Of a DNA stretch of 64,000 nucleotides, positions 41,374 to 54,761 are shown piece after piece. The translations under genes were made by a program, and so were the position numbers. How positions within the stretch are numbered: the stretch's first letter is position 1; the number at the start of each line of letters is the position of its first letter. The notes beneath the pieces are model-generated. The model ran no database searches. It saw only the letters and a list, made by a program, of their open reading frames with translations, and had not been told where the DNA came from. The DNA comes from Methylocystis silviterrae (lineage in GTDB: Bacteria > Pseudomonadota > Alphaproteobacteria > Rhizobiales > Beijerinckiaceae): assembly GCF_013350005.1 (NCBI RefSeq), contig NZ_JABVWW010000004.1:248001-312000 (forward strand), given 5' to 3'.

Positions 41374-42810
41374 TCAGAAGAGCGCCGGCGCGGCCTTGTC
41401 CGTCGGAAACAGCTTATCGTCCCCTTCCACCGCGCGGGGCAGACAGACACGCGCGATCAGCCCGTTGGGCTCCCGATCGAGCAGCGACACGGATCCGCCG
41501 TGGTTCTCGACAAGCGAACGCACAATCGATAGGCCGAGTCCAAATCCGCTGTGCTCGTCAAGCGTTCGTCCCGGCTGACCGCGAACGAAGGGCTCAAATG
41601 CGGTGTTCTTGCCCTCCGCTGACATTCCCGGTCCGTCGTCAACGACGTCGACCTCGATGAGCGCTCCCGGGCCTTCCGCGATGTAGATGTCCACGGTCTT
41701 CGCGTGATGCGTCGCGTTTTCGACGAGATTGGTGAAAATGCGTTGCACGTCGCAAAGCGATCCGAAGACCATTTGGTGACCGTCGCCATGGTAGGTCACA
41801 TGATGCCCGAGGTCGCAGAACTCGTCGGCGACCGTTTGCAGAACGCTGTCGAGATCGACCAGGGAACAGTCGGATTTGTCGTCTCCTTCAGCGCGCAAAT
41901 ACTGCAAATTCTTGAACAGCATTGCGTCCATGAGATCGACGTCGCGCATTATCCGCTGCTGAAGGCTTTGATCTGACACAAATTCTGTTTTCAGCTTCAA
42001 CCGCGTGATGATCGTTCGCAAGTCATGACTGACCGCCGCGAGCACATGGGCGCGCGCGGCGATCATCTTGCTGATGCGCGCCTGCATGCGATTCAGCGAG
42101 CGGGTCAATTCGCGAACTTCCTGAGGACCTCGCTCCGGGAGCTGCGCTTTCGTATCGACATCGCTCGGAATCTGCTCAGCATATTTTGCCAGTCGTCGCA
42201 GCGGCGCCATGATCGCGTTCAGCGCCCAGAACACGAAGATCGCAGTGAATATGATGAAGGACAGGGCCGTTCGCGCGCCCTGAGTCAGGATGAACGGTTC
42301 GTCATCGGCATGCTGCCAAAGCCATCGCCATATCGAACCGGGAGATTTTTGATGCTCGGCGATTGAGACCGTCGCATAGCCGCCCTTATGCAATTCGACG
42401 GCGAGGACGCCGTAATCTCCGGGCGTTGAACTTTCGACCTCGAACACATCTGCGCCGCCCCACAACAGCGAGTCGATGTGACGAATTTCGTTTTCAAAGG
42501 CGAGATCGCCGCCGCCGGTCGAAGATGTCGCCGACGGAGGGCGCGACTCCTGAATCTCGATACTGGCGTAGGGTACGGCGTGAGAGAGCGCTGAAATGAC
42601 ATTGGCTCTCTCTGAGAGCGGAGCGACGTCCAAAGCGAGGATTATGCTCGCGATGAAATCTCCTTGGTCGACGATGTGCCGCCTACCGAACACATGGAAC
42701 ATGCCGATGACGATCGTTTGGAACGCCACGATCGACACGAAAATCAGCAGCGTGATTTGAACGGCCAGTTTGTTGAGCCGGAAACGCCAGGGAAGGCGAG
42801 CAGGGTTCAT
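41374..42810 (-). CDS. Sensor histidine kinase (OmpR/EnvZ-type two-component system)
   Basis: The 478-residue inner-membrane kinase has TM1 at about 15-42, a periplasmic sensor of about 140 residues, TM2 at about 182-200 and HAMP at about 201-253. The phosphoacceptor His262 is in AAVSHDLRTIITRLKLKTEF. The ATPase has N-box NLVENATHHA, G1 DVVDDGPGM and G2 SGFGLGLSIVRSLVENHGG. The ATG at 42810 overlaps the response-regulator stop (ATGA). The pair is divergent from the SulP/complex-I-like operon and is the obvious candidate regulator; the periplasmic signal is unknown. Confidence 0.92.
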   Translation of the reverse strand: MNPARLPWRFRLNKLAVQITLLIFVSIVAFQTIVIGMFHVFGRRHIVDQGDFIASIILALDVAPLSERANVISALSHAVPYASIEIQESRPPSATSSTGGGDLAFENEIRHIDSLLWGGADVFEVESSTPGDYGVLAVELHKGGYATVSIAEHQKSPGSIWRWLWQHADDEPFILTQGARTALSFIIFTAIFVFWALNAIMAPLRRLAKYAEQIPSDVDTKAQLPERGPQEVRELTRSLNRMQARISKMIAARAHVLAAVSHDLRTIITRLKLKTEFVSDQSLQQRIMRDVDLMDAMLFKNLQYLRAEGDDKSDCSLVDLDSVLQTVADEFCDLGHHVTYHGDGHQMVFGSLCDVQRIFTNLVENATHHAKTVDIYIAEGPGALIEVDVVDDGPGMSAEGKNTAFEPFVRGQPGRTLDEHSGFGLGLSIVRSLVENHGGSVSLLDREPNGLIARVCLPRAVEGDDKLFPTDKAAPALF

Positions 42811-43526
42811 GCGCGCGCCACGTGAGTGGAGAAAATATAGCCCTCGGAGCGAACCGTCTGGATGAACGCGGGCTTTTTTGGATCCGCTTCTATCTTCTGT
42901 CGAAGCCGGCTGATCAGAACGTCGATGCTGCGCTCGAAGGGCCCAGTCGTCGGTCCATGCGTCATGTTGATCAGTTGCTCGCGCGTCAACACCCGATGGG
43001 GATTTTCGCACAAAGCATGCAACAGATCGAATTCGGCGCCGGTCATGGCCACCTTTATGCCGCATGGCGCGACGACCTCCCGCGCCAGCACATCGACGCG
43101 CCAGCCCGAGAAAAGATACGCTTGCCGTACGGCGCGCCCGTCGACGGCGTTCGGGTTTTCAGTTCGTCTCAGTACGGCGCGGATGCGCGCCAGCAGTTCG
43201 CGCGAATTGAACGGCTTGACGATGTAATCGTCGGCCCCGAGCTCCAGACCCAATATTTTATCGATATCCTCCGACTGCGCCGTCAGTATGATTATAGGGA
43301 TGCGTCTCTCGGATCGCACCCGCCGGCAGATCGACAAGCCGTCTTCGCCGGGAAGATTAAGATCGAGGATCAGCAGGTCATAAGCCCCGGCGCTGAACGC
43401 AGCGTCCATTGCCTGGGCGTTTGCGGCCACCTTTGTCTGAATATCATGCGCCGCGAGATAGAGGGAGACGAACTCGCCGATTTCGGCGTCATCCTCGACG
43501 ATCAGTATTGAAATGGGAGGGGTCAA
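42807..43526 (-). CDS. OmpR-family response regulator
   Basis: The 239-residue regulator has a receiver domain at 1-120: acidic EDD near residue 11, phosphorylation site Asp55 in LLILDLNLPG, conserved Thr in ILTAQ and Lys in IVKPFNSREL. A winged-helix DNA-binding domain follows (MTGAEFDLLHALCENPHRVLTREQLINM and RSIDVLISRLRQKIE, SEGYIF). It is cotranscribed with the histidine kinase. A 263-base divergent region separates it from the SulP gene. Confidence 0.95.
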   Translation of the reverse strand: MTPPISILIVEDDAEIGEFVSLYLAAHDIQTKVAANAQAMDAAFSAGAYDLLILDLNLPGEDGLSICRRVRSERRIPIIILTAQSEDIDKILGLELGADDYIVKPFNSRELLARIRAVLRRTENPNAVDGRAVRQAYLFSGWRVDVLAREVVAPCGIKVAMTGAEFDLLHALCENPHRVLTREQLINMTHGPTTGPFERSIDVLISRLRQKIEADPKKPAFIQTVRSEGYIFSTHVARA

Positions 43527-43789: not shown

Positions 43790-45580
43790 ATGAAAAGCAA
43801 AGCTCAGGCTGTCACCCACGACCTGGAAGCGGTCGCGGCAGAGACGAGCGCCTCTCAGCGTCCCAGTTCGTCGTCGCAAGAATGGCTGGGCGAGGACCTG
43901 GGCGGACCCGCCGCGGATGAGAATCGCCCAAATTTCACAGGGACGATTCCAGCCCGGTTCACGCCGAAGACCGGCCTCGCCGGATTGGCCGAAAATTGGC
44001 GCGCCGACGTTCTGTCCGGCTTTCTGGTGTTTCTTATCGCGCTGCCGCTATGCCTTGGCATTGCGATGGCGTCGGGTTTTCCGCCCCAGGCGGGCATCAT
44101 CACCGCCGTCGTCGGCGGCCTGCTGGTGTCACGAATCAATGGCTCCTTCGTCACCATCACCGGCCCGGCGGCGGGCCTCATCGTGGTCATTCTGGACTCG
44201 GTGCAGGCGCTCGGCGACGGCGACGCCAAAGCCGGCTACCACTACACCTTGGCGGCGATTGTATGCGCCAGCGTCATTCAGATGCTGATGGGCATCATGA
44301 AAGCCGGCAAGATGAGCGCCTTTTTTCCGTCCTCGGCCGTGCATGGCATGTTGGCGGCGATCGGCATCATCATTATGGCCAAGCAGATTCACGTCATGCT
44401 CGGCGTGAAGCCGGATGCGCAGTCTCTGTTTGAGACAATCGGCGCCATCCCCGCTAGCCTGCGCGACATGAATCCGGAGGTCGCCATTATTGGCTTCATT
44501 GGGCTTTTGATCCTGATCGCCTGGTCGTTGGTGAAGAGTCGCCGACTAAAAATGATCCCGGCGCCGCTCGTCGTCGTCATCATCGGCATGGCGCTCGCGC
44601 AATATTATGATCTCGACGATGAACATATCTATCTCTTCCTGCCGGACTATCCGTTTCTGCCGCATCACGAATTCACGATCGGTCCGAAATTCCTTGTCTC
44701 GATTCCGCAGAACTTCCTGTCCGGCTTCGCCTTCCCGGATTTCTCGCTGATCGGCTCCAGCATGTTCTGGCAGCAAGTCTTCGCCATCTGTCTCGTTGGC
44801 AGCCTGGAAAGCTTGCTCAGCTCGGCGGCGGTCGATAAGCTCGATCCCTATAGGCGCACCTCAGATCTCAACCGCGACCTCGCGGCGGTCGGCTTCGGCA
44901 ATATTATATGCGGCCTGATTGGCGGTATGCCGATGATCGCAGAAATCGTCCGCAGCTCCGCCAATGTGAATAATGGCGCGCGCACGGGGTGGGCGAATTT
45001 CTTCCACGGATTGTTCCTGCTGACCTTCGTCGCGCTTTTCCCGAGGGTCATTCACGAGATCCCGCTTGCCTCGCTCGCGGCGCTGCTGGTGTTCACCGGC
45101 TACCGACTTGCATCGCCGCTCGAGTTCAAGAAGACGCTGGCGATCGGCTGGGACCAGCTCACCGTTTTCGTGATTACGATCATCGGCGTGCTGGGGACCG
45201 ATCTCTTGATCGGCGTCGCCATCGGCATCGCCGCCGAGTTCCTGTTCCACTTCTGGCGTAGCGTTAACTGGGGACAGGTGTTTAAGCTGCATCGCGACGT
45301 CGTGGAGCGCGCGCCCGGCGTTTATCAGGTCAAGATCGGCGGCGCGGCCTTTTTCGCCAACTACCTCGCGCTCAAGGGCGATCTCGCCAAGCTCCCAAAG
45401 GGCAAGACGGTCATCTTTGATCTCTCAGACTCCTGGTGCGTCGATCATACGGTGATGGAGAACCTTCATCACTTTTGCGAGGACTATGAAGCAAACGGCG
45501 GCCACGCAGAGATTTGCGGACTGGATCAACACGTTGCGACGTCAAAGCATCCTCTCGCCCCACGCAAGCGCAGCGTCTAG
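43790..45580 (+). CDS. SulP-family anion transporter with STAS domain
   Basis: The 596-residue protein has a hydrophilic N-terminus of about 65 residues, then the SulP core at about 70-490. Core features are ADVLSGFLVFLIALPLCLGIAMASGFPP, INGSFVTITGPAAGLIVVILDSVQAL, and SLESLLSSAAVDKLDPYRRTSDLNRDLAAVGFGNIICGLIGGMPMIAEIVRSSANVNNGA. A C-terminal STAS-like domain is at about 500-580 (VYQVKIGGAAFFANYLALKGDLAKLPKGKTVIFDLSDSWCVDHTVMENLHHF). The family carries sulfate, bicarbonate (as in cyanobacterial BicA) and other anions. It is followed 57 bases later by six complex-I-like genes in the same direction, an association suggesting a joint function. Confidence 0.92.
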   Translation: MKSKAQAVTHDLEAVAAETSASQRPSSSSQEWLGEDLGGPAADENRPNFTGTIPARFTPKTGLAGLAENWRADVLSGFLVFLIALPLCLGIAMASGFPPQAGIITAVVGGLLVSRINGSFVTITGPAAGLIVVILDSVQALGDGDAKAGYHYTLAAIVCASVIQMLMGIMKAGKMSAFFPSSAVHGMLAAIGIIIMAKQIHVMLGVKPDAQSLFETIGAIPASLRDMNPEVAIIGFIGLLILIAWSLVKSRRLKMIPAPLVVVIIGMALAQYYDLDDEHIYLFLPDYPFLPHHEFTIGPKFLVSIPQNFLSGFAFPDFSLIGSSMFWQQVFAICLVGSLESLLSSAAVDKLDPYRRTSDLNRDLAAVGFGNIICGLIGGMPMIAEIVRSSANVNNGARTGWANFFHGLFLLTFVALFPRVIHEIPLASLAALLVFTGYRLASPLEFKKTLAIGWDQLTVFVITIIGVLGTDLLIGVAIGIAAEFLFHFWRSVNWGQVFKLHRDVVERAPGVYQVKIGGAAFFANYLALKGDLAKLPKGKTVIFDLSDSWCVDHTVMENLHHFCEDYEANGGHAEICGLDQHVATSKHPLAPRKRSV

Positions 45581-45637
45581 CCTGTAAAGTTCACGCAAGG
45601 CGCGACCGACCGCCGCGCCGATTCGAAGGTGACACGT

Positions 45638-47635
45638 ATGCCGCTCTACCTGGCGCTGACCTGTGTCAGCGCGCTGCTCGCCGTCAGCGTCTACGCCATC
45701 GTCGACAGGCGGAACCACGACGTCAGCCGTAACGTCTATCGCCTTTGCATCGGCCTCTGCGGCGTCCTCTTCCTCGCGGCGGTCATGCCAAGGGGCGCTC
45801 ATGTCGTTTCGACGGCTTTGCCGCTCGGACTGCCGTGGATCGGCATGCATTTTCGCATCGACGTCCTGACCGCCTTTTTTCTCGCCGTCGTCAATCTGGG
45901 CGGCGCGGCGGCGAGCGCCTATGCGATCGGCTATGGCGCGCATGAGAAAGAGCCGATGCGCGTGCTGCCGTTCTATCCAGCTTTTCTCGCTGGCATGAAC
46001 CTCGTCGTGCTGGCCGACGACGCCTTCACTTTCCTCGTCGCTTGGGAGTTCATGTCGCTTACTTCTTGGGCGCTCGTGCTGACGCATCATCATGAGGAGG
46101 AGAACAGGCGGGCCGGCTTCGTCTATTTATTGATGGCGAGCTTCGGCGGGTTTGCGCTGTTGATGGCGTTTGGCGTTCTCGGTGGCGTCGCCGGCGCCTA
46201 CGACTTCGCCTCGATTCGCGAGTCGACCAAGGAGGGATGGAAGACGGGCCTCGTCCTGGCCCTCGCGTTAGTCGGAATGGGGTCCAAAGCGGGACTCGCG
46301 CCCTTGCATATCTGGCTGCCGCTCGCCCATCCGGCGGCGCCAAGCCACGTCTCGGCGCTGATGAGCGGCGTCATGACGAAGGTCGCCATCTACGGCTTCA
46401 TTCGGGTTGTGTTCGATTTGCTTGGGCCGCCGGCCTTCTGGTGGTCGGTCGAGCCGATGACCTTTGGCGCAGCGAGCGCCCTCATCGGCGTTCTCTTCGC
46501 GACGATTCAGAGCGATCTGAAGAAGCTGCTCGCCTACAGCACCATCGAAAACATCGGCATCATCTTCATCGCGCTCGGTCTTGCCTTGGCGTTCAAGGCC
46601 AATGGCATGGCGCTGCCGGCCGCGCTCGCCTTCACCGCGGCGCTCTTTCACGTTTTCAATCATTCGCTGTTCAAGAGCCTGCTGTTCTTTGGCGCCGGCG
46701 CGGTATTGAACGCGAGCGGCGAAAGAAGCATCGAACGGCTCGGCGGTCTTATTCACTCCATGCCGAAAACGGCGTTCCTTTTTCTCGGCGGCTGCGTCGC
46801 CATCGCCGCCCTGCCGCCGCTGAACGGCTTTGTGTCGGAATGGCTGGTCTTCCAGGCGATCTTGCTGAGCCCGTCGCTGCCGCAATGGACCGTGAAGCTC
46901 CTCGTTCCGGCGGTCGGCGTGGCGCTGGCGCTGAGCGCGGCGCTCGGCGCCGGCTGCTACATACGCGCCTATGGCGTCGCCTTTCTGGGGCGCCCCCGCA
47001 GCGAAGCGGCGCGCGCGGCGCATGATCCGGATCGCTGGTCGCTTGGGACCATGGCGGTTTTGCTGACGCTGTGCCTCATGGCCGGTCTGCTGCCGAGCCT
47101 CCTCATCGACATGATTTCACCCGTGGCGAAAGATTTTGTCGGCGGCCGCATGCCGACGCAGGCTGAACTCTCCTGGCTCTCGATCGCGCCCGTGGCCGAA
47201 AGCCGCAGCTCCTACAATGGACTTCTGGTCTTCGCGTTCATTCTCTTCTCCGCCTATTCGGCGAGATGGGTCATCCACAAATTTGGCACGGCGCGGTCGC
47301 GGCGCGCGCCGGCCTGGGACTGTGGCTACATCGAAACCAGTCCCATGACGCAATACACCGCCAGCAGCTTCGCGCAGCCGATCCGGCGCACCCTTGGCGT
47401 CATCGCCTTTTCGGTGCGGGACCGCCTCGACATGCCGGCGCCGGGCGATACGCGGCCCGCGCGCTTGAGCGTCGACATCAAGGATCGGATCTTCGACTAT
47501 CTTTATGCGCCCCTCACGCGGGCGGTGGAATCCTGCGCCGCCGGGCTGAACATCCTCAGTCTCCTGACGATCCAGGAATATCTCGCGCTGGTTTTCGCGG
47601 CGCTCGTCTTCCTCCTGGTCCTGGTGGCGATATGA
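45638..47635 (+). CDS. hyfB: Hydrogenase-4/complex-I-like membrane subunit B (antiporter-like)
   Basis: The 665-residue NuoL/HyfB-like protein has about 16 transmembrane segments. Proton-channel residues are kept: Glu137 in VAWEFMSLTSW, Lys217 in GMGSKAGLAPLHIWLPLAHPAAPSHVSALMSG, Lys248 in GVMTKVAIYG, and DLKKLLAYSTIENIGI. FNHSLFKSLLFFGAG and the cytoplasmic WDCGYIE motif are typical of HyfB. ATG 45638 is preceded by GAAGGTGA with good spacing; a GTG at 45629 is an alternative. Its TGA overlaps the ATG of the next gene. It should pump or conduct protons (or Na) as part of an Ehr-like complex. Confidence 0.93.
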   Translation: MPLYLALTCVSALLAVSVYAIVDRRNHDVSRNVYRLCIGLCGVLFLAAVMPRGAHVVSTALPLGLPWIGMHFRIDVLTAFFLAVVNLGGAAASAYAIGYGAHEKEPMRVLPFYPAFLAGMNLVVLADDAFTFLVAWEFMSLTSWALVLTHHHEEENRRAGFVYLLMASFGGFALLMAFGVLGGVAGAYDFASIRESTKEGWKTGLVLALALVGMGSKAGLAPLHIWLPLAHPAAPSHVSALMSGVMTKVAIYGFIRVVFDLLGPPAFWWSVEPMTFGAASALIGVLFATIQSDLKKLLAYSTIENIGIIFIALGLALAFKANGMALPAALAFTAALFHVFNHSLFKSLLFFGAGAVLNASGERSIERLGGLIHSMPKTAFLFLGGCVAIAALPPLNGFVSEWLVFQAILLSPSLPQWTVKLLVPAVGVALALSAALGAGCYIRAYGVAFLGRPRSEAARAAHDPDRWSLGTMAVLLTLCLMAGLLPSLLIDMISPVAKDFVGGRMPTQAELSWLSIAPVAESRSSYNGLLVFAFILFSAYSARWVIHKFGTARSRRAPAWDCGYIETSPMTQYTASSFAQPIRRTLGVIAFSVRDRLDMPAPGDTRPARLSVDIKDRIFDYLYAPLTRAVESCAAGLNILSLLTIQEYLALVFAALVFLLVLVAI

Positions 47636-48585
47636 CGCTTCTTTTCAACATCCTGGCGCAAGGCGTCCAAATGCTTTTGGTGCTTGCGCTGGCGCCGCTG
47701 CTCATCGGCTTTGTTCGAAAGCTGAAGGCGCGCCTCCTGCGCCGCAAAGGGCCGCCGATCATTCAACCCTGGCTCGATCTCATTCGCCTGCTGCGCAAGG
47801 AGGTCGTCCTCGCGGAAAACGCGTCGTGGCTGTATCGCTGGGCGCCCTATCTGATCTTTGCGATGATCTGGGTCGCCGCATCGCTCGTGCCGACGTTCGC
47901 CACGGGACTGACGTTCAGCTGGTCGGCCGATCTCATCGCCATCATCGCCCTGCTCGGCAGCGCCCGTTTCTTCCTTGCTCTCGCGGGCATGGACATTGGA
48001 ACGAGTTTCGGCGGCATCGGCTCGAGTCGCGAGGCGATGTTCGGCTCGCTCGCGGAGCCGGCGATGATGATGATCGTCTTCACCGTCTCCTTCGTCGCCG
48101 GAACGACGCAGCTGTCTGAAATTGCAGCCTACATGGTCGCGAATATGGAATTGCGCGCCTCGGTCGGGATGGCGCTCGTCGCGCTCCTCATCGTCGCCAT
48201 CGCAGAGAATGGACGGATTCCCGTCGATAATCCCGCGACCCATCTTGAGTTGACGATGGTGCATGAGGCGATGGTTCTCGAATATTCCGGGCGCTATCTC
48301 GCGCTCATTGAACTCGCCGCGGCGCTCAAGCTGCTCCTTTATCTCTCGCTCATCGCCTGCGTCTTTTTCCCCGTCGGGCTCGCCTCGCATGATGCGGGCG
48401 CGGAGGCGATGATGATTGGGCTTTGCGCTTACGTCCTGAAGCTGGCGATCGGCGGCGGCGCGCTCGCGCTGTTTGAGACAACCACAGCCAAGATGCGCAT
48501 CTTCCGCGTTCCCGACTTTCTCGGCGCGGGGCTGATGCTTGGCCTCCTTGCGACGCTGCTCGTTTTCGTGACACGGAGCCTCTGA
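47632..48585 (+). CDS. hyfC: Hydrogenase-4/complex-I-like membrane subunit C (NuoH-like)
   Basis: The 317-residue protein is homologous to NuoH/HycD, the subunit that docks the hydrophilic arm on the membrane. The conserved cytoplasmic loop is LLRRKGPPIIQPWLDLIRLLRKE, and the charged loop is AENGRIPVDNPATHLELTMVHEAMVLEYSG, with the Glu/Asp residues of the E-channel. There are about eight transmembrane helices. It overlaps hyfB by four bases (ATGA), and its stop shares one base with the start of hyfE. Confidence 0.93.
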   Translation: MTLLFNILAQGVQMLLVLALAPLLIGFVRKLKARLLRRKGPPIIQPWLDLIRLLRKEVVLAENASWLYRWAPYLIFAMIWVAASLVPTFATGLTFSWSADLIAIIALLGSARFFLALAGMDIGTSFGGIGSSREAMFGSLAEPAMMMIVFTVSFVAGTTQLSEIAAYMVANMELRASVGMALVALLIVAIAENGRIPVDNPATHLELTMVHEAMVLEYSGRYLALIELAAALKLLLYLSLIACVFFPVGLASHDAGAEAMMIGLCAYVLKLAIGGGALALFETTTAKMRIFRVPDFLGAGLMLGLLATLLVFVTRSL

Positions 48586-49247
48586 TGGAGCTTTTGACAA
48601 TCGACATCGCCCATGTGCTCGCGGGCGCGCTCCTGCTGACGAGCTTCATGCTGCTGTATCAGGATCGACTGTCGGGGCTGATCAATATCTACACGCTCCA
48701 CGCCGTCATCCTGTCGCTGTCGGTCGCCTGGCAGGCCTATTACCAGGACGCACATCATCTCTATCTAACGGCTGCCATCGCGGCGATCTTCAAGGCGCTG
48801 ATCATTCCCTTCAGCCTTCGCCACATCATCAAGCGTTTGCGCATCCATCGCACCGTGGAGGTCGTTGGCGGCGTCGGCATCACCATGCTCATCGGCATAT
48901 TTCTCGTGGCGCTGTCGCTCGTCGTCATGCTGCCGGCGACCGCCTCCGCTGATCCGCTGTCGCGCGAAGACATCGCATTCGCCTTGGCGATCGTGCTGCT
49001 GGGGCTGTTGATGATGGTGACGCGACGCAACGTCGTGAGCCAGATTATCGGTTTCATGTCGCTGGAAAATGGTCTGGTTTTGGCGGCGGCAGGGGCGAAC
49101 GGCATGCCACTCGTCGTCGAGATCAGCGTCGCCTTTTCCATTCTCATCGCCTTCATCGTGATCGGCATCTTCCTGTTTCGCATCCGTGAGCGATTCGACA
49201 ACGTTGAGCTTTCTGAACTCGATCGCGTGCGCGGAGGACGTTCATGA
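48585..49247 (+). CDS. hyfE: Hydrogenase-4/complex-I-like membrane subunit E (NuoK-like)
   Basis: The 220-residue HyfE-type subunit has six or seven transmembrane helices; its C-terminal part resembles NuoK (VVSQIIGFMSLENGLVLAAAGANGMPLVVEISVAFSILIAFIVIGIFLFR), with the conserved Glu in LENG and Glu in VEIS. The N-terminal extension (GLINIYTLHAVILSLSVAWQAYY) is typical of HyfE. Its TGA/ATG junctions with hyfC and hyfF show translational coupling. Confidence 0.9.
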   Translation: MELLTIDIAHVLAGALLLTSFMLLYQDRLSGLINIYTLHAVILSLSVAWQAYYQDAHHLYLTAAIAAIFKALIIPFSLRHIIKRLRIHRTVEVVGGVGITMLIGIFLVALSLVVMLPATASADPLSREDIAFALAIVLLGLLMMVTRRNVVSQIIGFMSLENGLVLAAAGANGMPLVVEISVAFSILIAFIVIGIFLFRIRERFDNVELSELDRVRGGRS

Positions 49248-50692
49248 GTTCCGATCTCTTCCTGGTCTCGAACGCGCTTGTCGGCATTCCCGCCGTCGCG
49301 GCCATTGCCGTTGCGCTTGAACCGGCCTACCGACGCTCGGCGATCATCAACCTCTGCGCCTCCGGCGCGACGTTTCTCTTCGCGCTTGTGCTTCTCGTCG
49401 TCGAGCCCGAAAGCGGCGGCTATCTCTTTGTCGACGACCTCAACATCGTCTTTGTTGTGCTCTCGACCTTCATCGGCTTCACCACGAGCGTCTATAGCGC
49501 GAGCTATATCGACCATGAGATCGAAACTGGCCGACTGACCACGAGAAACGTCCGCTTCTATCACGCGATGTATCAGTCGCTGATGTGCGCGATGAATCTG
49601 GCGCTGCTCGCCAGCAACATCGGCCTCATGTGGGTCGCGGTCGAAGTCGCGACCCTGACAACCGTGTTGATGGTCGGCATGTACCGCACGCCGCACGCTC
49701 TCGAGGCCGCTTGGAAATATTTTATCCTCGGCAGCGTCGGGATCGCGCTGGCGCTCTTCGGCACGATCCTCATTTACATGGCGGCCGAGCCGGTTCTGGG
49801 ACAGGGCTACGACGCCATGGTCTGGACGACGCTGATGCAGAAAGCGCCGCAGTTCAATCCGCGGATGCTCAACGTCGCCTTCGTGTTCCTGATGCTCGGC
49901 TACGGCACGAAGGTTGGGTTGGCGCCGATGCACGCCTGGCTTCCGGATGCGCACGCGGAGGGCCCGACGCCGATCTCGGCGGTCTTGTCCGGCCTCCTGC
50001 TCAATGTCGCGCTTTACGCGGTGCTGCGGTTCAAGATGCTGCTGACGGCCAATGCGGCGGCGATTACGCCCGGCCCGCTGATGATCACGCTCGGCCTTGC
50101 ATCTCTCATCATGGCGGCCTTCATGCTTTACCGCCGTGGCGACATCAAGCGGCTGTTCGCCTACTCCTCCATCGAGCACATGGGCATTATCGCCTTCGCT
50201 TTCGGCATGGGCGGACCGCTCGCCAACTTCGCCGGTCTGCTGCACATGACGATGCACAGCCTGACGAAGTCCGCGATCTTCTTCTCGGTTGGTCACATCG
50301 CGCAGGTCAAGGGCACGCAGAGAATCGCCGACATCAGAGGACTGACGCAGAGCCAGCCGGCGCTCGGCTGGTCCCTCGTCGCTGGCGTCGTCGCAATTAT
50401 CGGTCTGCCGCCGCTGGGCATCTTCATGAGCGAATTTCTCGTCGTGAGCTCGACCTTCGCACGCCAGCCGCTCCTCGCTATCCCGCTGGTTTTCGGCCTC
50501 CTTCTCGCCTTTGGCGCCTTGCTGTTGCGGCTCACCGGGATGGCGTTCGGTGAGCCAAGCCGCGACCAAGGCGAGGTGAAGGCGTCGATGTGGCCTGTCT
50601 ACGCCCATCTATCCCTTGTGCTGCTGGCCGGAATCTATCTCCCGTCTCACGTCGTGACCTGGTTCCAGAACGTCGCGCGACTGTTAGGCTGA
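49244..50692 (+). CDS. hyfF: Hydrogenase-4/complex-I-like membrane subunit F (NuoM/N-like antiporter)
   Basis: The 482-residue second antiporter-like subunit has about 14 transmembrane segments. Channel residues are present: Glu in WVAVEVATLTT, Lys in GYGTKVGLAPMHAWLPDAHAEGPTPISAVLSG, DIKRLFAYSSIEHMGI, MTMHSLTKSAIFFSVGH, and the discontinuous-helix region IIGLPPLGIFMSEF. It overlaps hyfE by four bases. With hyfB this gives two antiporter-like subunits in the complex. No hyfD is present, so the membrane arm is smaller than that of hydrogenase-4. Confidence 0.92.
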   Translation: MSSDLFLVSNALVGIPAVAAIAVALEPAYRRSAIINLCASGATFLFALVLLVVEPESGGYLFVDDLNIVFVVLSTFIGFTTSVYSASYIDHEIETGRLTTRNVRFYHAMYQSLMCAMNLALLASNIGLMWVAVEVATLTTVLMVGMYRTPHALEAAWKYFILGSVGIALALFGTILIYMAAEPVLGQGYDAMVWTTLMQKAPQFNPRMLNVAFVFLMLGYGTKVGLAPMHAWLPDAHAEGPTPISAVLSGLLLNVALYAVLRFKMLLTANAAAITPGPLMITLGLASLIMAAFMLYRRGDIKRLFAYSSIEHMGIIAFAFGMGGPLANFAGLLHMTMHSLTKSAIFFSVGHIAQVKGTQRIADIRGLTQSQPALGWSLVAGVVAIIGLPPLGIFMSEFLVVSSTFARQPLLAIPLVFGLLLAFGALLLRLTGMAFGEPSRDQGEVKASMWPVYAHLSLVLLAGIYLPSHVVTWFQNVARLLG

Positions 50693-50709
50693 GTTCGAAG
50701 GATGAAAAG

Positions 50710-52227
50710 ATGAACTTCGCCAGCAAACAAATACCGGCCCAGCCATCGCCGCCGACGTGTCTGCCCTGGCCGCGTGAGATCGTCGACAGAGCTGGTTGGC
50801 TCGCTTTCGCCGAAAGTCTTGCGAGAGGCGAGCGCGAACTCCTCAGCCTCTGGGGCGAGAGTTCGAGCGTTCACATGGCGGTGCTCGAAGAGCGGGAGCC
50901 GCGCCTGCGCATTGTCACGTTGGACTGCCCCAAGGGCTCCTTTCCATCCGTCGGGCGATTGCATCCGCCGGCGTCGAGGCTCGAGCGCGCGATCCGCGAT
51001 CTTTATGGCCTGCGAGCCGAAAACGCGCCCGACGAGCGGCCCTGGCTCGATCATGGCCGTTGGGGCGTGCGTCATCCTTGCAACGACCCCGAAAAGATCG
51101 ACTCCGCCAGTGACAGCTACGCGTTCCTTCCCGCAGAAGGCGAACCGCTCCACCAGATACCGGTCGGACCCGTGCACGCCGGCATTATCGAGCCGGGCCA
51201 TTTCCGCTTCTCAGCCAATGGCGAAACCGTCGTGCGGCTTGAGGAGCGGTTTGGCTTCGTGCACAAGGGCGTCGATCAACTGATGGCCGGCGCCTCGATC
51301 GAGCGCGCCGCGCGTCTCGCGGCGCGCGTGTCCGGCGACAGCACGGTCGCCTATAGCCTCGCCTTTTCGCAGGCGATCGAAGCGGCGTTCGACGTCAATG
51401 TTCCGCCGCGCGCGACATATCTGCGCGCGCTGATGGCTGAACTCGAACGGCTCGCCAATCATTTCGGCGATATCGGCGCCATCTGTAACGACGCGGCCTT
51501 CGCATTGATGCATGCGCAGTGCGGCATCGTCCGCGAACGCATCTTGAGAAAAGCGGCAAGTTGCTTCGGGCACCGCCTGATGATGGATCGCATCGCGCCG
51601 GGAGGCGTTGTCGTCGATTTGGAGCAAGAGAACGTCGCGGCGCTTTTCACGCTGATCGAGTGGATCGAGCTCATGACTCCGCGCCTGATCGCGCTCTTCG
51701 GCGACACGACGTCGCTGCAGGATCGAACCGTCGGAACCGGCGTCGTCAGTGAGGCGCTCGCAAAGCAATATGCGTGCGGGGGCTATGTCGGACGCGCCTC
51801 CGGCCGGACATTCGACGCGCGCAAGGCGATCGGTTACGCCCCCTACCCGCAGCTGACGTTCGAGATCGGCGCCGCGAAGGGAGGCGACGTCGACGCGCGC
51901 GTCTGGGTCCGGTTCGATGAAATCCGAGCCTCGCTGCGAATCGTCAGACAGATTCTCGACGAGGCGCCGGAGGGTCCGATCATCGCCGCATGGACGCTGC
52001 CCGAAGACTGGACGCGCGAAGGCGCCGCGCTCGTCGAAGGATTTCGCGGCGATATATTTGTCTGGCTGCGCATTCGCGCTGACGGCGTGGTCCAGCGCTG
52101 TCATTTGCGCGATCCGTCCTGGTTCCAGTGGCCGCTGCTCGAAGCGGCGATCAAGGACAACATCGTCGCCGACTTCCCCCTCTGCAACAAATCTTTCAAC
52201 TGTTCCTACTCGGGGCATGATCTCTAG
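50710..52227 (+). CDS. Hydrogenase-like large subunit lacking Ni-Fe ligands (NuoC-NuoD/HycE-like)
   Basis: The 505-residue protein fuses a NuoC-like part (about 45-120) with a NuoD/HycE-like large subunit (HFRFSANGETVVRLEERFGFVHKGVDQLMAG onward). In active group 4 hydrogenases the N-terminal motif is RVCGxC; here it is RVSGDS, with Ser208 and Ser211 and Tyr215 where His is usual. The C-terminal DPCxxC is replaced by NCSYSG (residues 497-502), so those cysteines are Ser499 and Gly502. All four metal-binding cysteines are gone and no protease-cleaved tail follows. It cannot hold a Ni-Fe site and belongs to the energy-converting-hydrogenase-related (Ehr) group. AAGGAT precedes the ATG. Confidence 0.9.
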   Translation: MNFASKQIPAQPSPPTCLPWPREIVDRAGWLAFAESLARGERELLSLWGESSSVHMAVLEEREPRLRIVTLDCPKGSFPSVGRLHPPASRLERAIRDLYGLRAENAPDERPWLDHGRWGVRHPCNDPEKIDSASDSYAFLPAEGEPLHQIPVGPVHAGIIEPGHFRFSANGETVVRLEERFGFVHKGVDQLMAGASIERAARLAARVSGDSTVAYSLAFSQAIEAAFDVNVPPRATYLRALMAELERLANHFGDIGAICNDAAFALMHAQCGIVRERILRKAASCFGHRLMMDRIAPGGVVVDLEQENVAALFTLIEWIELMTPRLIALFGDTTSLQDRTVGTGVVSEALAKQYACGGYVGRASGRTFDARKAIGYAPYPQLTFEIGAAKGGDVDARVWVRFDEIRASLRIVRQILDEAPEGPIIAAWTLPEDWTREGAALVEGFRGDIFVWLRIRADGVVQRCHLRDPSWFQWPLLEAAIKDNIVADFPLCNKSFNCSYSGHDL

Positions 52228-52239
52228 GACACGCGCGCG

Positions 52240-52755
52240 ATGCAGAAATTCTTGCTTCAGGGCCTGCTCCGCCGCGCTCTGACCGAACAGGCCCCCATTC
52301 CGAATCCGACGTCGATCGCGGAACTTGGCTACACGCTGGGACGCACCGCGCGCCAAAAACTGGGCCGAAGTCTGTCGATCCGCGAAGTCGACGCGGGCTC
52401 CTGCAATGGTTGCGAGCTGGAGATCCACGCGCTCAACAACGCCTATTACGATCTCGAGAGATTCGGCATGCGCTTCGTGGCGTCGCCACGTCACGCCGAC
52501 GTCTTGCTCGTCACCGGACCGGTGACGAAAAACATGCGCGAAGCGCTTGAGCGAACCTATGCGGCGACGCCGGATCCAAAATGGGTGATCGCCGTCGGCG
52601 ACTGCGCCTTTGACGGCGGCGTTTATTGCGAGAGCTACGCATGCGTCGGCGCCGTCGCGAAAGTCGTCCCCGTCGATCTTCATATTCGCGGCTGTCCGCC
52701 TGATCCGACGACGCTGCTCAAGGGGCTGATCGCCTTCGTTGAAACGATGAGCTGA
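52240..52755 (+). CDS. Complex-I/hydrogenase-4-like small subunit (NuoB/HyfI-like, [4Fe-4S])
   Basis: The 171-residue protein is homologous to NuoB/HycG. The cubane ligands are intact: Cys55 and Cys58 in AGSCNGCELE, Cys122 in VGDCAFDGGVYC and Cys152 in IRGCPPDPTTLL, matching the proximal/N2 cluster. Two extra cysteines (130 and 135) lie between. It starts 12 bases after the large-subunit stop and ends the tightly packed operon. No HycB/HyfA/HyfH-type ferredoxin gene follows, so the electron donor or acceptor of the cluster is unknown. Confidence 0.92.
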   Translation: MQKFLLQGLLRRALTEQAPIPNPTSIAELGYTLGRTARQKLGRSLSIREVDAGSCNGCELEIHALNNAYYDLERFGMRFVASPRHADVLLVTGPVTKNMREALERTYAATPDPKWVIAVGDCAFDGGVYCESYACVGAVAKVVPVDLHIRGCPPDPTTLLKGLIAFVETMS

Positions 52756-53012: not shown

Positions 53013-54761
53013 ATGAATCTCCCAGGCTGGAAGCATGTCGCGGCAAGCGGGCTTGTCGCGGTTTTCTCGACAACGGCGGCGCATGCCGCCTCAAGCGACG
53101 CGATTGAGGCGAGGCTGCGAGTGCTGGAGGCGGAGATTGCAAAACTGCGGCGAGAGGCTCGCCAGGCCAAAGCAGAAGCCCAGCAGGCGACTCAGTCCGC
53201 TCAACGAAGCGTGGCGAAGGCCGAGGCGGCGCAAACCGCGACGCCGCTCATGCCGCCGGTTTTTGTCGCATTCAAGAACGGCCTGTTCGTCGAAAGCGCG
53301 GACAAAGCCTACAGCTTCAAGATTGGCGGGCGCATGCAGTTCGATGGCGGCGGCGCGGCGCAGCCGCTCAATGGCTGGTCAGGCCAGGCCGGCGTGCGCC
53401 AGGTGCGTCTCGAAGTGGAGGGCAAGGCTGCAAAATACTGGTTCTACAAACTGCAATATGATTTCGCCGGCTCGCAATATGGCACGCCCTTCAATGCGCC
53501 AGTTCAGGGAGGCATTCGCGACTTCTATCTTGGCGTACAACATCCCATTCTCGCGCTGCCATTCACGAAGGAGCCAGCCTTCATCCATATCGGCAGCTAT
53601 TTCGAACCCTTCAGCCTCGAATTCACCGCGTCCTCGCGGTTCCGCGACTTCATCGAACGCGCCATGGCGGTCGAAGCCATCGCGCCCAGCCGCCACCTTG
53701 GCGCGGCGATCGGCGCTTATGGCGACAATTGGACCGCCAAGGGCGGCATCTTCACCACGAGCTTCGAAGATTTGAACACAAACCCCGCAGTCGGCGCGCC
53801 GCCGTTAATCGGCATTCCGGCGCGCGCCGGTTGGGTCCCCACAGGCGGCGGCCAATATTTCGATCTGACAGGCCGATTGACCTACGCGCCGATCATGACT
53901 GAACATGATCTGCTGCATGTCGGCGTGTCGGGCCGCTATCACCAGCCAAACAGCGCCACGGGATTATCCGACGATCGCGTGCTGCGGATCGGCAACCGCA
54001 TTCGCTCGGAAGCCTATATCCTCAATCAAGGGCTGCTCGGCACGCCGGATCTCTCGTGTGGCTCCGTCGCTCTGCCGGGATGGACGTCGGCCGCCGCGGC
54101 GCATTGCGTCAATAGCGTCGAGTCCTTCGGCGTGGAGCTGTCCGCGGCGCATGGGCCGTTCTCGCTGCAGGCCGAGTATCTGGGGCAGCAGGTCAATCGC
54201 AACACGACCAATATCGCGCTCGCGCGCCTCGCGGGCGCTTTCGCGCCGGGCGGCGCCTCGCATTATTTCAGCGGCTTTTATCTCTACGGGCAATGGTACC
54301 TGACCGGCGAGGAGCGCGCCGCCGCATATGACGTGACGAACAAAATCGGCGCGAACTTCAATCAGATCACGATCAAGCATCCGATGAGCGCCGGCGGCTT
54401 TGGCGCACTTGGGCTCGCCGCGCGCTACAGCGCGCTCAATCTCAACAGCGGACCCTATAGCGGCTCAAGCCTCTACAACATGCTCGCCTATACGACGCTC
54501 ATCGCGCCCAATCCAGCCGCGGCCTCCTATATCGCCAACGCTGGCGTGGTCGGCGGCCGCCAGCAAAACGTCACTCTGGGACTCAACTGGTATCCCGACA
54601 ATGGATTCCATTTTCAGTTCAACTGGGTCCATGTGCTGCAGGCCTCCGCGCCGCTCAATGATTACGCCTTGTTCACAACCGGCGTTCCGACGCGGCAAGG
54701 CCCCTATTTCAACGGCGCCCATCCCGATCTCTTCGAAGCGCGCGCGCAGGTCTATTGGTAG
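53013..54761 (+). CDS. OprO/OprP-like outer-membrane porin with N-terminal coiled coil
   Basis: The 582-residue protein has a signal peptide (GLVAVFSTTAAHAAS, cleavage near 25) and a coiled-coil segment at about 28-75 (AIEARLRVLEAEIAKLRREARQAKAEAQQATQ). A beta-barrel follows, starting FKIGGRMQFDGG and containing RQVRLEVEGKAAKYWFYKLQYDFAG and FIHIGSYFEPFSLEFTASSRFRDFIERAMAVEA. It ends in a terminal aromatic (QVYW) as BAM substrates do. This is the phosphate/anion-selective OprP family pattern; selectivity is unproven. It lies 257 bases after the complex-I-like operon in the same direction, so an anion-uptake link is attractive. The ribosome-binding site is weak. Confidence 0.85.
   Translation: MNLPGWKHVAASGLVAVFSTTAAHAASSDAIEARLRVLEAEIAKLRREARQAKAEAQQATQSAQRSVAKAEAAQTATPLMPPVFVAFKNGLFVESADKAYSFKIGGRMQFDGGGAAQPLNGWSGQAGVRQVRLEVEGKAAKYWFYKLQYDFAGSQYGTPFNAPVQGGIRDFYLGVQHPILALPFTKEPAFIHIGSYFEPFSLEFTASSRFRDFIERAMAVEAIAPSRHLGAAIGAYGDNWTAKGGIFTTSFEDLNTNPAVGAPPLIGIPARAGWVPTGGGQYFDLTGRLTYAPIMTEHDLLHVGVSGRYHQPNSATGLSDDRVLRIGNRIRSEAYILNQGLLGTPDLSCGSVALPGWTSAAAAHCVNSVESFGVELSAAHGPFSLQAEYLGQQVNRNTTNIALARLAGAFAPGGASHYFSGFYLYGQWYLTGEERAAAYDVTNKIGANFNQITIKHPMSAGGFGALGLAARYSALNLNSGPYSGSSLYNMLAYTTLIAPNPAAASYIANAGVVGGRQQNVTLGLNWYPDNGFHFQFNWVHVLQASAPLNDYALFTTGVPTRQGPYFNGAHPDLFEARAQVYW

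What the first reader, a model, noticed from the sequence alone, without database searches (positions are those of the whole stretch)
43790..52755. SulP anion transporter in a putative operon with a complete complex-I-like Ehr membrane machine
Seen: SulP gene, 57-base gap, then hyfB, hyfC, hyfE, hyfF, a large subunit without Ni ligands and a [4Fe-4S] small subunit, with ATGA or one-base overlaps between the membrane genes. Known: SulP proteins such as BicA take up bicarbonate; NuoL-like proteins power other carbon uptake systems (DabAB); Ehr complexes resemble group 4 hydrogenases without Ni-Fe ligands. Inference: the complex may energise anion (bicarbonate, sulfate or other) uptake through redox- or proton-driven coupling, or use the anion gradient. 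I know of no characterised system of this composition.
Basis: partly seen in the sequence, partly recalled or inferred. Interest (0 to 1): 0.85.

Follow-up and report, generated by a model that had tools for sequence, protein, structure and literature searches.

The report
Methanotroph operon: anion carrier plus Ehr
In one genus of methane-eating bacteria an anion transporter, possibly for bicarbonate, sits conserved directly in front of the genes for a nickel-free complex-I-like membrane machine of unknown function, which gives a testable lead on what that machine does.

Summary
In detail: SulP (43790-45580) is followed on the same strand by a six-gene Ehr cluster, hyfBCEFGI (45629-52755), without Ni ligands but with the [4Fe-4S] cysteines and the antiporter Glu/Lys residues kept. 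The genome is a methanotroph, probably Methylocystis.

Outside this genus SulP is rarely beside Ehr: 2 of 157 loci examined (some genomes twice). There the commonest recurring neighbour is an HTH gene upstream of hyfB. Inside the genus SulP lies directly upstream of hyfB in 29 of 39 genomes. The HyfG tree fits one gain, kept while HyfG diverged to 63% identity, once on a contig with plasmid rep genes.

The SulP groups with all eight carbonic-anhydrase-linked SulPs tested against DauA (100/99), including both paralogues of this genome, though its exact place is weakly supported. Bicarbonate is the likeliest cargo, not shown. RuBisCO and DabA were not found. Whether Ehr energises SulP is untested; co-regulation alone is the main rival. 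A new variant built of known parts.

The parts
43790..45580 (+). SulP-family anion transporter, 596 aa, with a weak STAS-like C-terminal part
   Evidence: PF00916 4.2e-62, STAS 8e-5; placed in the tree
45629..47635 (+). HyfB, antiporter-like membrane subunit (NuoL-like); start GTG 45629 or ATG 45638
   Evidence: NF005086 829.9 bits; equivalents of NuoL Glu144, Lys229, Lys342 kept
47632..48585 (+). HyfC, NuoH-like membrane subunit, 317 aa, ATGA overlap with hyfB (the longer mechanical ORF begins at 47266)
   Evidence: PF00146 1.5e-37; start seen
48585..49247 (+). HyfE, NuoK-like membrane subunit
   Evidence: NF008556 87.6 bits, PF00420 4e-5, both below their cut-offs
49244..50692 (+). HyfF, second antiporter-like subunit
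   Evidence: NF005043 838.7 bits; Glu/Lys/Lys kept
50590..52227 (+). HyfG-like (NuoCD-like) large subunit without Ni ligands; start unsettled (GTG 50590 or ATG 50707)
   Evidence: PF00346 1.3e-38, PF00329 2.6e-7; motif loss
52240..52755 (+). HyfI/NuoB-like small subunit with one [4Fe-4S] site
   Evidence: PF01058 3.4e-34; four cysteines kept
53013..54761 (+). Porin O/P-type outer-membrane protein downstream; follows hyfI in some species only
   Evidence: PF07396 1.1e-37; found after hyfI in 11 of 26 SulP-type loci that hold hyfI, one of them partial, one locus holding only 1.1 kb downstream
42807..43526 (-). OmpR-type response regulator, divergent from SulP
   Evidence: PF00072 and PF00486; divergent within 3 kb of SulP in 21 of 26 loci with upstream sequence
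41374..43065 (-). EnvZ-like sensor histidine kinase; the mechanical ORF overlaps the regulator, so the true start is probably later
   Evidence: HATPase_c, HAMP; NF007004 172 bits, below its cut-off

Best explanation
SulP and hyfBCEFGI form one co-expressed anion-transport and ion-pumping unit in Methylocystis-like methanotrophs. Shown: gene order, loss of the Ni site, kept FeS and antiporter residues, a tree that fits one gain, and retention in the genus. Inferred: the six Hyf proteins assemble into an Ehr complex that couples a cytoplasmic redox reaction to H+ or Na+ movement, and SulP uses that gradient (or balances its charge or pH) to bring in bicarbonate, which serine-cycle methanotrophs need for PEP carboxylase (recalled). 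Coupling is more likely through the shared ion gradient and shared regulation than through a stable SulP-Hyf complex.
For: SulP directly upstream of hyfB on the same strand in 29 of 39 genus genomes. HyfG tree: genus Ehr one clade (100/100), HTH-type 100/99, SulP-type 99/93; all 27 rows of the last whose upstream is held have SulP, the 28th is cut off. HTH just upstream of hyfB in 0 of 28 SulP-type loci and in 4 of 4 other genus loci that show hyfB. Pair kept on a contig with repAB in G893 and in 5 loci where the regulator was not found. SulP groups with 8 of 8 CA-linked SulPs against DauA and the SulPs of L130 and L189, 100/99; 7 of 7 plasmid SulPs at 34-37% identity (four from one genus) and both own paralogues lie beside a beta-CA. 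A CysT sulfate permease is present, so sulfate uptake need not depend on SulP. Antiporter residues kept.
Against: Ehr occurs without SulP nearly everywhere else and in three genus genomes (G955, G964, G966), so its basic function does not need SulP. The 29 cases look like one inherited event. The sister place of the window clade to seven CA-linked SulPs has only 81/54 support and the program flags long-branch joins. The window clade itself has no beta-CA neighbour, and none was found on any locus held by then apart from the known CA-SulP pairs (two CA queries). PMC6458275 counts YchM, that is DauA, as a bicarbonate transporter too, so grouping away from DauA is not clean evidence. RuBisCO and DabA not found. 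No transcript, protein or transport data.
Confidence: 0.4

Rival explanations
1. Co-regulation only: SulP and Ehr answer to the same two-component system (redox, pH or carbon stress) but do unrelated jobs; SulP took the place of the HTH regulator gene at the promoter.
For: The response regulator is divergent upstream in 21 of 26 loci; HTH upstream and intact SulP were not seen together; Ehr elsewhere mostly lacks a shared metabolic neighbour.
Against: In 5 of 26 loci the pair is kept although the regulator was not found within 3 kb. The downstream porin is kept less well (11 of 26) than the pair (27 of 27 readable rows of the SulP-type clade).
Confidence: 0.32
2. The cargo is formate or another small carboxylate, and the Ehr complex works with a formate-oxidising enzyme, as in formate hydrogenlyase.
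For: The E. coli hyf region ends with the formate channel gene focB; no FocA-type channel was found in the genome; FDH-Ehr complexes have been proposed (PMC6349859, passages). Formate is central in methane oxidation (recalled).
Against: No formate dehydrogenase among the genes of the block; SulP groups with CA-linked SulPs rather than with DauA.
Confidence: 0.13
3. Ehr itself hydrates CO2, driven by redox or an ion gradient, and SulP handles the bicarbonate: Ehr stands where related SulPs have a carbonic anhydrase.
For: Beta-CA is the neighbour of the CA-linked SulPs. A NuoL-like protein takes part in CO2 hydration in DAB2 (PMC13144422, passages). A. caldus has one hyf cluster beside a beta-CA gene and another near carbon-fixation genes (PMC3826726, section 15).
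Against: No CO2-hydrating motif was identified. The C-terminal cysteines of HyfG are not strictly kept: C538 is Gly in the three gammaproteobacterial sequences read (L130, L189, L197) and both are replaced in L026. No beta-CA was found on the Ehr loci held (two queries).
Confidence: 0.08
4. SulP imports sulfate, molybdate or another oxyanion.
For: PF00916 family name; weak MFS_MOT1 match 5.7e-8.
Against: A CysT-type sulfate permease above its cut-off is in the genome; the SulP groups with CA-linked SulPs.
Confidence: 0.07

Closest known systems
Ehr complexes and hyf-like operons of Nitrospira
   Same: PMC5596200 (passages) describes hyfBCEFGI operons, which it calls a putative group 4 hydrogenase; PMC10284858 (passages) describes Ehr in comammox Nitrospira, near group 4f, without the Ni-binding CxxC motifs and of unknown function
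   Different: Here preceded by SulP and, in most loci, by a divergent two-component system instead of an HTH gene
E. coli hydrogenase 4 / formate hydrogenlyase
   Same: Homologous B, C, E, F, G and I subunits; an anion channel gene, focB, lies in the hyf region after hyfR
   Different: No Ni site; no HyfA, HyfD, HyfH or HyfJ between sulP and the porin gene; SulP instead of FocB
can2-sulP modules (A. ferrooxidans; clade C of PMC6458275)
   Same: Related SulP next to the gene of a partner
   Different: Partner is the Ehr cluster, not carbonic anhydrase; the window SulP was not placed on that paper's own tree. The paper assigns bicarbonate by phylogeny, synteny and transcripts, not by a transport assay in the passages seen
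DAB / MpsAB inorganic carbon systems
   Same: A NuoL-like (PF00361) subunit in a proposed carbon-uptake setting
   Different: DabA (PF10070) was not found in the genome; here a six-subunit Ehr cluster is present

Membership tests
Ehr complex | Group-4-like large subunit without the Ni-binding cysteines | tested here: met
   Both CxxC motifs lost against HycE and E. coli HyfG; same in the 16 aligned relatives by eye
Ehr complex | Small subunit with [4Fe-4S] cysteines, and antiporter-like membrane subunits | tested here: met
Ehr complex | Coupling of a redox reaction to ion translocation | not testable with these tools
   Only sequence evidence: antiporter residues kept
Group 4 [NiFe] hydrogenase | Four Ni-binding cysteines | tested here: not met
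Respiratory complex I (quinone-reducing) | Quinone-site tyrosine of NuoCD (the Y in RIEYLG; its role is recalled) | tested here: not met
   Aligned to Gly in RVSGDST
SulP family | PF00916 domain above cut-off | tested here: met
   210.5 bits against 23.2
CA-linked SulP (clade C type) | Adjacent or fused beta-carbonic anhydrase | tested here: not met
   None on the window by two beta-CA queries
CA-linked SulP (clade C type) | Phylogenetic grouping with CA-linked SulPs | tested here: inconclusive
   With all eight against DauA, L130 and L189 at 100/99, but sister to seven of them at 81/54, midpoint root
CA-linked SulP (clade C type) | Bicarbonate transport | not testable with these tools
   No assay
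BicA | NCBIfam NF050096 above its cut-off | tested here: not met
   120.6 bits against 880
DAB complex | DabA (PF10070) in the genome | tested here: not met
   0 matches

The most novel reading that the evidence does not exclude
SulP-Ehr is a dedicated bicarbonate-uptake machine of methanotrophs in which a nickel-free complex-I relative powers, or chemically feeds, a SulP carrier: a further kind of complex-I-related inorganic-carbon device beside cyanobacterial NDH-1 and DAB, and a first physiological partner for an Ehr complex.
Probability: 0.18. Interest if true: 0.85.

Novelty: new variant of a known kind. Interest (0 to 1): 0.55.

Why it matters
Ehr clusters of this type occur here in many alphaproteobacteria and some gammaproteobacteria, are described in Nitrospira, and the texts I saw call their function unknown or unclear. 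A lineage in which the cluster has kept an anion carrier as first gene gives a genetically testable lead, in organisms that matter for methane and CO2 turnover.

Tried and rejected
A universal SulP-Ehr system: rejected. With a panel of seven SulP proteins (tblastn, over 60 bits) a SulP was on the stretch in 2 of 80 named, 0 of 25 alpha and 1 of 53 gamma loci.

A carbon-fixation neighbour of Ehr: none recurred among clustered flank ORFs of the 80 named loci plus the window's flanks or of 45 loci, 44 gamma and L130. One search did show, besides the HTH cluster (26 loci), an ABC-ATPase family at scattered distances (15 loci), two short-ORF clusters (13 and 11 loci) that look like shadow ORFs, and one of 7 loci; I did not follow these. 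No beta-CA was found on the loci held except beside the own-genome and Klebsiella-plasmid SulPs. RuBisCO and DabA: no match. Promoter and terminator scan: no more than in shuffles.

The SulPs of L130 (Competibacteraceae MAG; overlaps hyfI by four bases) and L189 (split cluster) group with DauA, not with the window SulP: sporadic pairings, not support for the same unit. A SulP 57% identical on a Methylomagnum plasmid lies after amoABC; no Hyf match on the 25.6 kb fetched.

Structure prediction was not run: its stated output holds confidence and secondary structure, no coordinates.

Changed on checking: confidence from 0.42 to 0.40, novel case from 0.20 to 0.18 and co-regulation from 0.30 to 0.32, because the SulP sister grouping is weaker (81/54) than I had first written.

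Full report
What is there. On the + strand a SulP gene (43790-45580) is followed by hyfB, hyfC, hyfE, hyfF, a NuoCD-like large subunit and a NuoB-like small subunit, ending at 52755, then a Porin O/P gene (53013-54761). Divergent from SulP lie an OmpR-type response regulator and an EnvZ-like kinase.

The machine. Aligned with E. coli HycE, HyfG and NuoCD, the large subunit has lost all four Ni-binding cysteines and has Gly where NuoCD has its quinone-site tyrosine (a role recalled, not tested); the small subunit keeps all four [4Fe-4S] cysteines. HyfB and HyfF keep the equivalents of NuoL Glu144, Lys229 and Lys342. No gene for a ferredoxin-type subunit or HyfD lies between sulP and the porin gene. 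By anatomy it is an Ehr cluster: antiporter-like parts kept, one FeS site, catalytic centre unknown. PMC10284858 (passages) calls the function of such complexes unknown; PMC5596200 (passages) calls the role of the hyfBCEFGI cluster unclear in two comammox genomes, while proposing formate hydrogenlyase in others.

The organism. The genome (3.85 Mb, 64 contigs) has two PmoA/AmoA-family genes and no match for RuBisCO or DabA. A contig of a genus relative (G893:C2) matches an IS5 element of Methylocystis iwaonis plasmids at 93% and repAB of a Methylosinus plasmid at 80%.

Wide context. So outside the genus: 1 of 79 named, 0 of 25 alphaproteobacterial, 1 of 53 gammaproteobacterial loci, together 2 of 157, some genomes twice. 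An HTH gene lies just upstream of hyfB in 38 of 80, 8 of 25 and 10 of 53; hyfB itself was seen in 69, 21 and 40. 'XRE-type' is my recalled label; Pfam gives HTH_31 and HTH_3 for one member. No carbon gene recurred beside Ehr, and no beta-CA was found on the Ehr loci held (two queries).

Genus context. In 39 genomes SulP directly upstream of hyfB was found in 29: the window and 28 fetched loci. All are on one strand; hyfB begins 14-202 nt after the SulP stop at the first start listed in 27 of 28. In the other, L311, earlier starts overlap SulP and hyfB aligns in two pieces, so a frameshift is possible. Three genomes have only an HTH-type Ehr (G955, G964, G966). G952 and G981 have both kinds; the second copy in G952 lacks hyfB, hyfC, hyfE and most of hyfF. 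G971 is cut off. Six show neither HyfG nor this pair (G963, G973, G982, G983, G984, G987), three of them under 90% complete. HTH just upstream of hyfB: 0 of 28 SulP-type loci, 4 of 4 other genus loci that show hyfB.

One gain. In a HyfG tree of 57 rows, with 24 outside rows that I chose, the genus forms one clade (100/100), split into an HTH-type clade (5 rows, 100/99) and a SulP-type clade (27 SulP rows plus the cut-off L329; 99/93). L331 and L334 were not in the tree. Whether L329 lies inside the SulP rows is unresolved (54/64). The simplest reading is one replacement of the HTH gene by SulP and retention while HyfG diverged to 63% identity from the window's (range 63-96%, 26 loci). The 28 fetched loci were picked for having SulP, so the count that is not circular is the tree's: 27 of 27 rows whose upstream is held. 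Flanks are kept less well: the regulator in 21 of 26 loci with upstream sequence, the porin in 11 of 26. In G893 the cassette lies on a 68-kb contig with repAB, presumably a plasmid.

What SulP carries. Both other SulPs of this genome lie just after a beta-carbonic-anhydrase gene on the same strand (Pfam-checked for one). Of nine plasmid SulPs found, the seven at 34-37% identity, four of them Caballeronia, lie beside a beta-CA; the two closest, Methylomagnum 57% and Persicobacter 44%, do not. In a tree of 28 SulPs, midpoint-rooted, the window clade and all eight CA-linked SulPs lie together against DauA and the SulPs of L130 and L189 (100/99); the nearer grouping, sister to seven CA-linked ones, has only 81/54 and long branches are flagged. 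PMC6458275 (passages) puts can-linked SulPs in a bicarbonate clade by phylogeny and synteny, but also counts YchM (DauA) and BicA as bicarbonate transporters and says SulPs outside its clade C carry STAS; the window SulP has a weak STAS match and was not placed on that tree. The genome has a CysT sulfate permease above its cut-off and no FocA-type channel. Bicarbonate is the best guess; formate stays open.

How it may work. Serine-cycle methanotrophs use bicarbonate in PEP carboxylase (recalled). I think it most likely that Ehr makes or spends an ion gradient and SulP uses or balances it to move bicarbonate, both expressed together. Gene order, residues and phylogeny are shown; every energetic step is inferred. 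Mere co-regulation is the main rival.

Known or new. Searches of the open-access library showed no paper on SulP beside Ehr in their listings, which are capped (20 of 12,746; 15 of 15; 25 of 42; 20 of 727; 20 of 334; 15 of 132; 0 of 0); most subscription papers are missing there. Two Methylocystis papers list hydrogenase groups 1, 2, 3 and 1h/5 and no group 4 or Ehr in the passages seen (PMC12566213, PMC7716213); a third held none of my Ehr or group 4 terms (PMC12319191). PMC10880623, a review of inorganic-carbon toolkits, held 'SulP' but not 'hydrogenase' or 'complex I'. The parts are known; the combination is new as far as I could see.

Noticed in passing
L062:6705-8981 and L063:6941-9193 (own genome, contigs C3 and C22): Both other SulP genes of this genome sit just after a beta-carbonic-anhydrase gene on the same strand (one Pfam-checked, one by tblastn).
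   Followed up: yes
L325 (G952, second Ehr copy): HTH gene followed almost at once by hyfG and hyfI; hyfB, hyfC, hyfE and most of hyfF are missing, a degenerate copy.
   Followed up: partly
L330:9078-10636 (G981): Downstream of an HTH-type Ehr lie a SulP fragment on the other strand and a response-regulator gene, perhaps a trace of how the modules came together.
   Followed up: no
L130:1208-3501: In a Competibacteraceae MAG a SulP that groups with DauA begins inside the last four bases of hyfI, a separate SulP-Ehr pairing.
   Followed up: partly
L189:173-6679: A gammaproteobacterial contig has a TauE-type permease, SulP, hyfF and hyfG in a row; hyfB, hyfC, hyfE and hyfI were not found on the stretch.
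   Followed up: partly
L235, L332, L333, L335-L338: Seven loci of the genus hold a second SulP, 75-78% identical to the window's, without Ehr; four of them were put in the tree and form their own clade. Neighbours look by eye like a short-chain dehydrogenase and a lipoprotein-like gene (not searched).
   Followed up: partly
L300:4756-6528: Where close relatives have the porin, this genome has a 591-aa ORF without a Pfam match; L304, L305 and L307 have similar-sized ones with only marginal likeness to the porin.
   Followed up: partly
G962:C1:2953523-2955157 (L273): The SulP-type hyfG of this genome shows one in-frame TGA; sequencing error or decay not decided.
   Followed up: no
L297:6788-13593: On a Methylomagnum plasmid the closest outside SulP (57%) follows amoABC, an MFS and a GST gene, near copper-related genes.
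   Followed up: no
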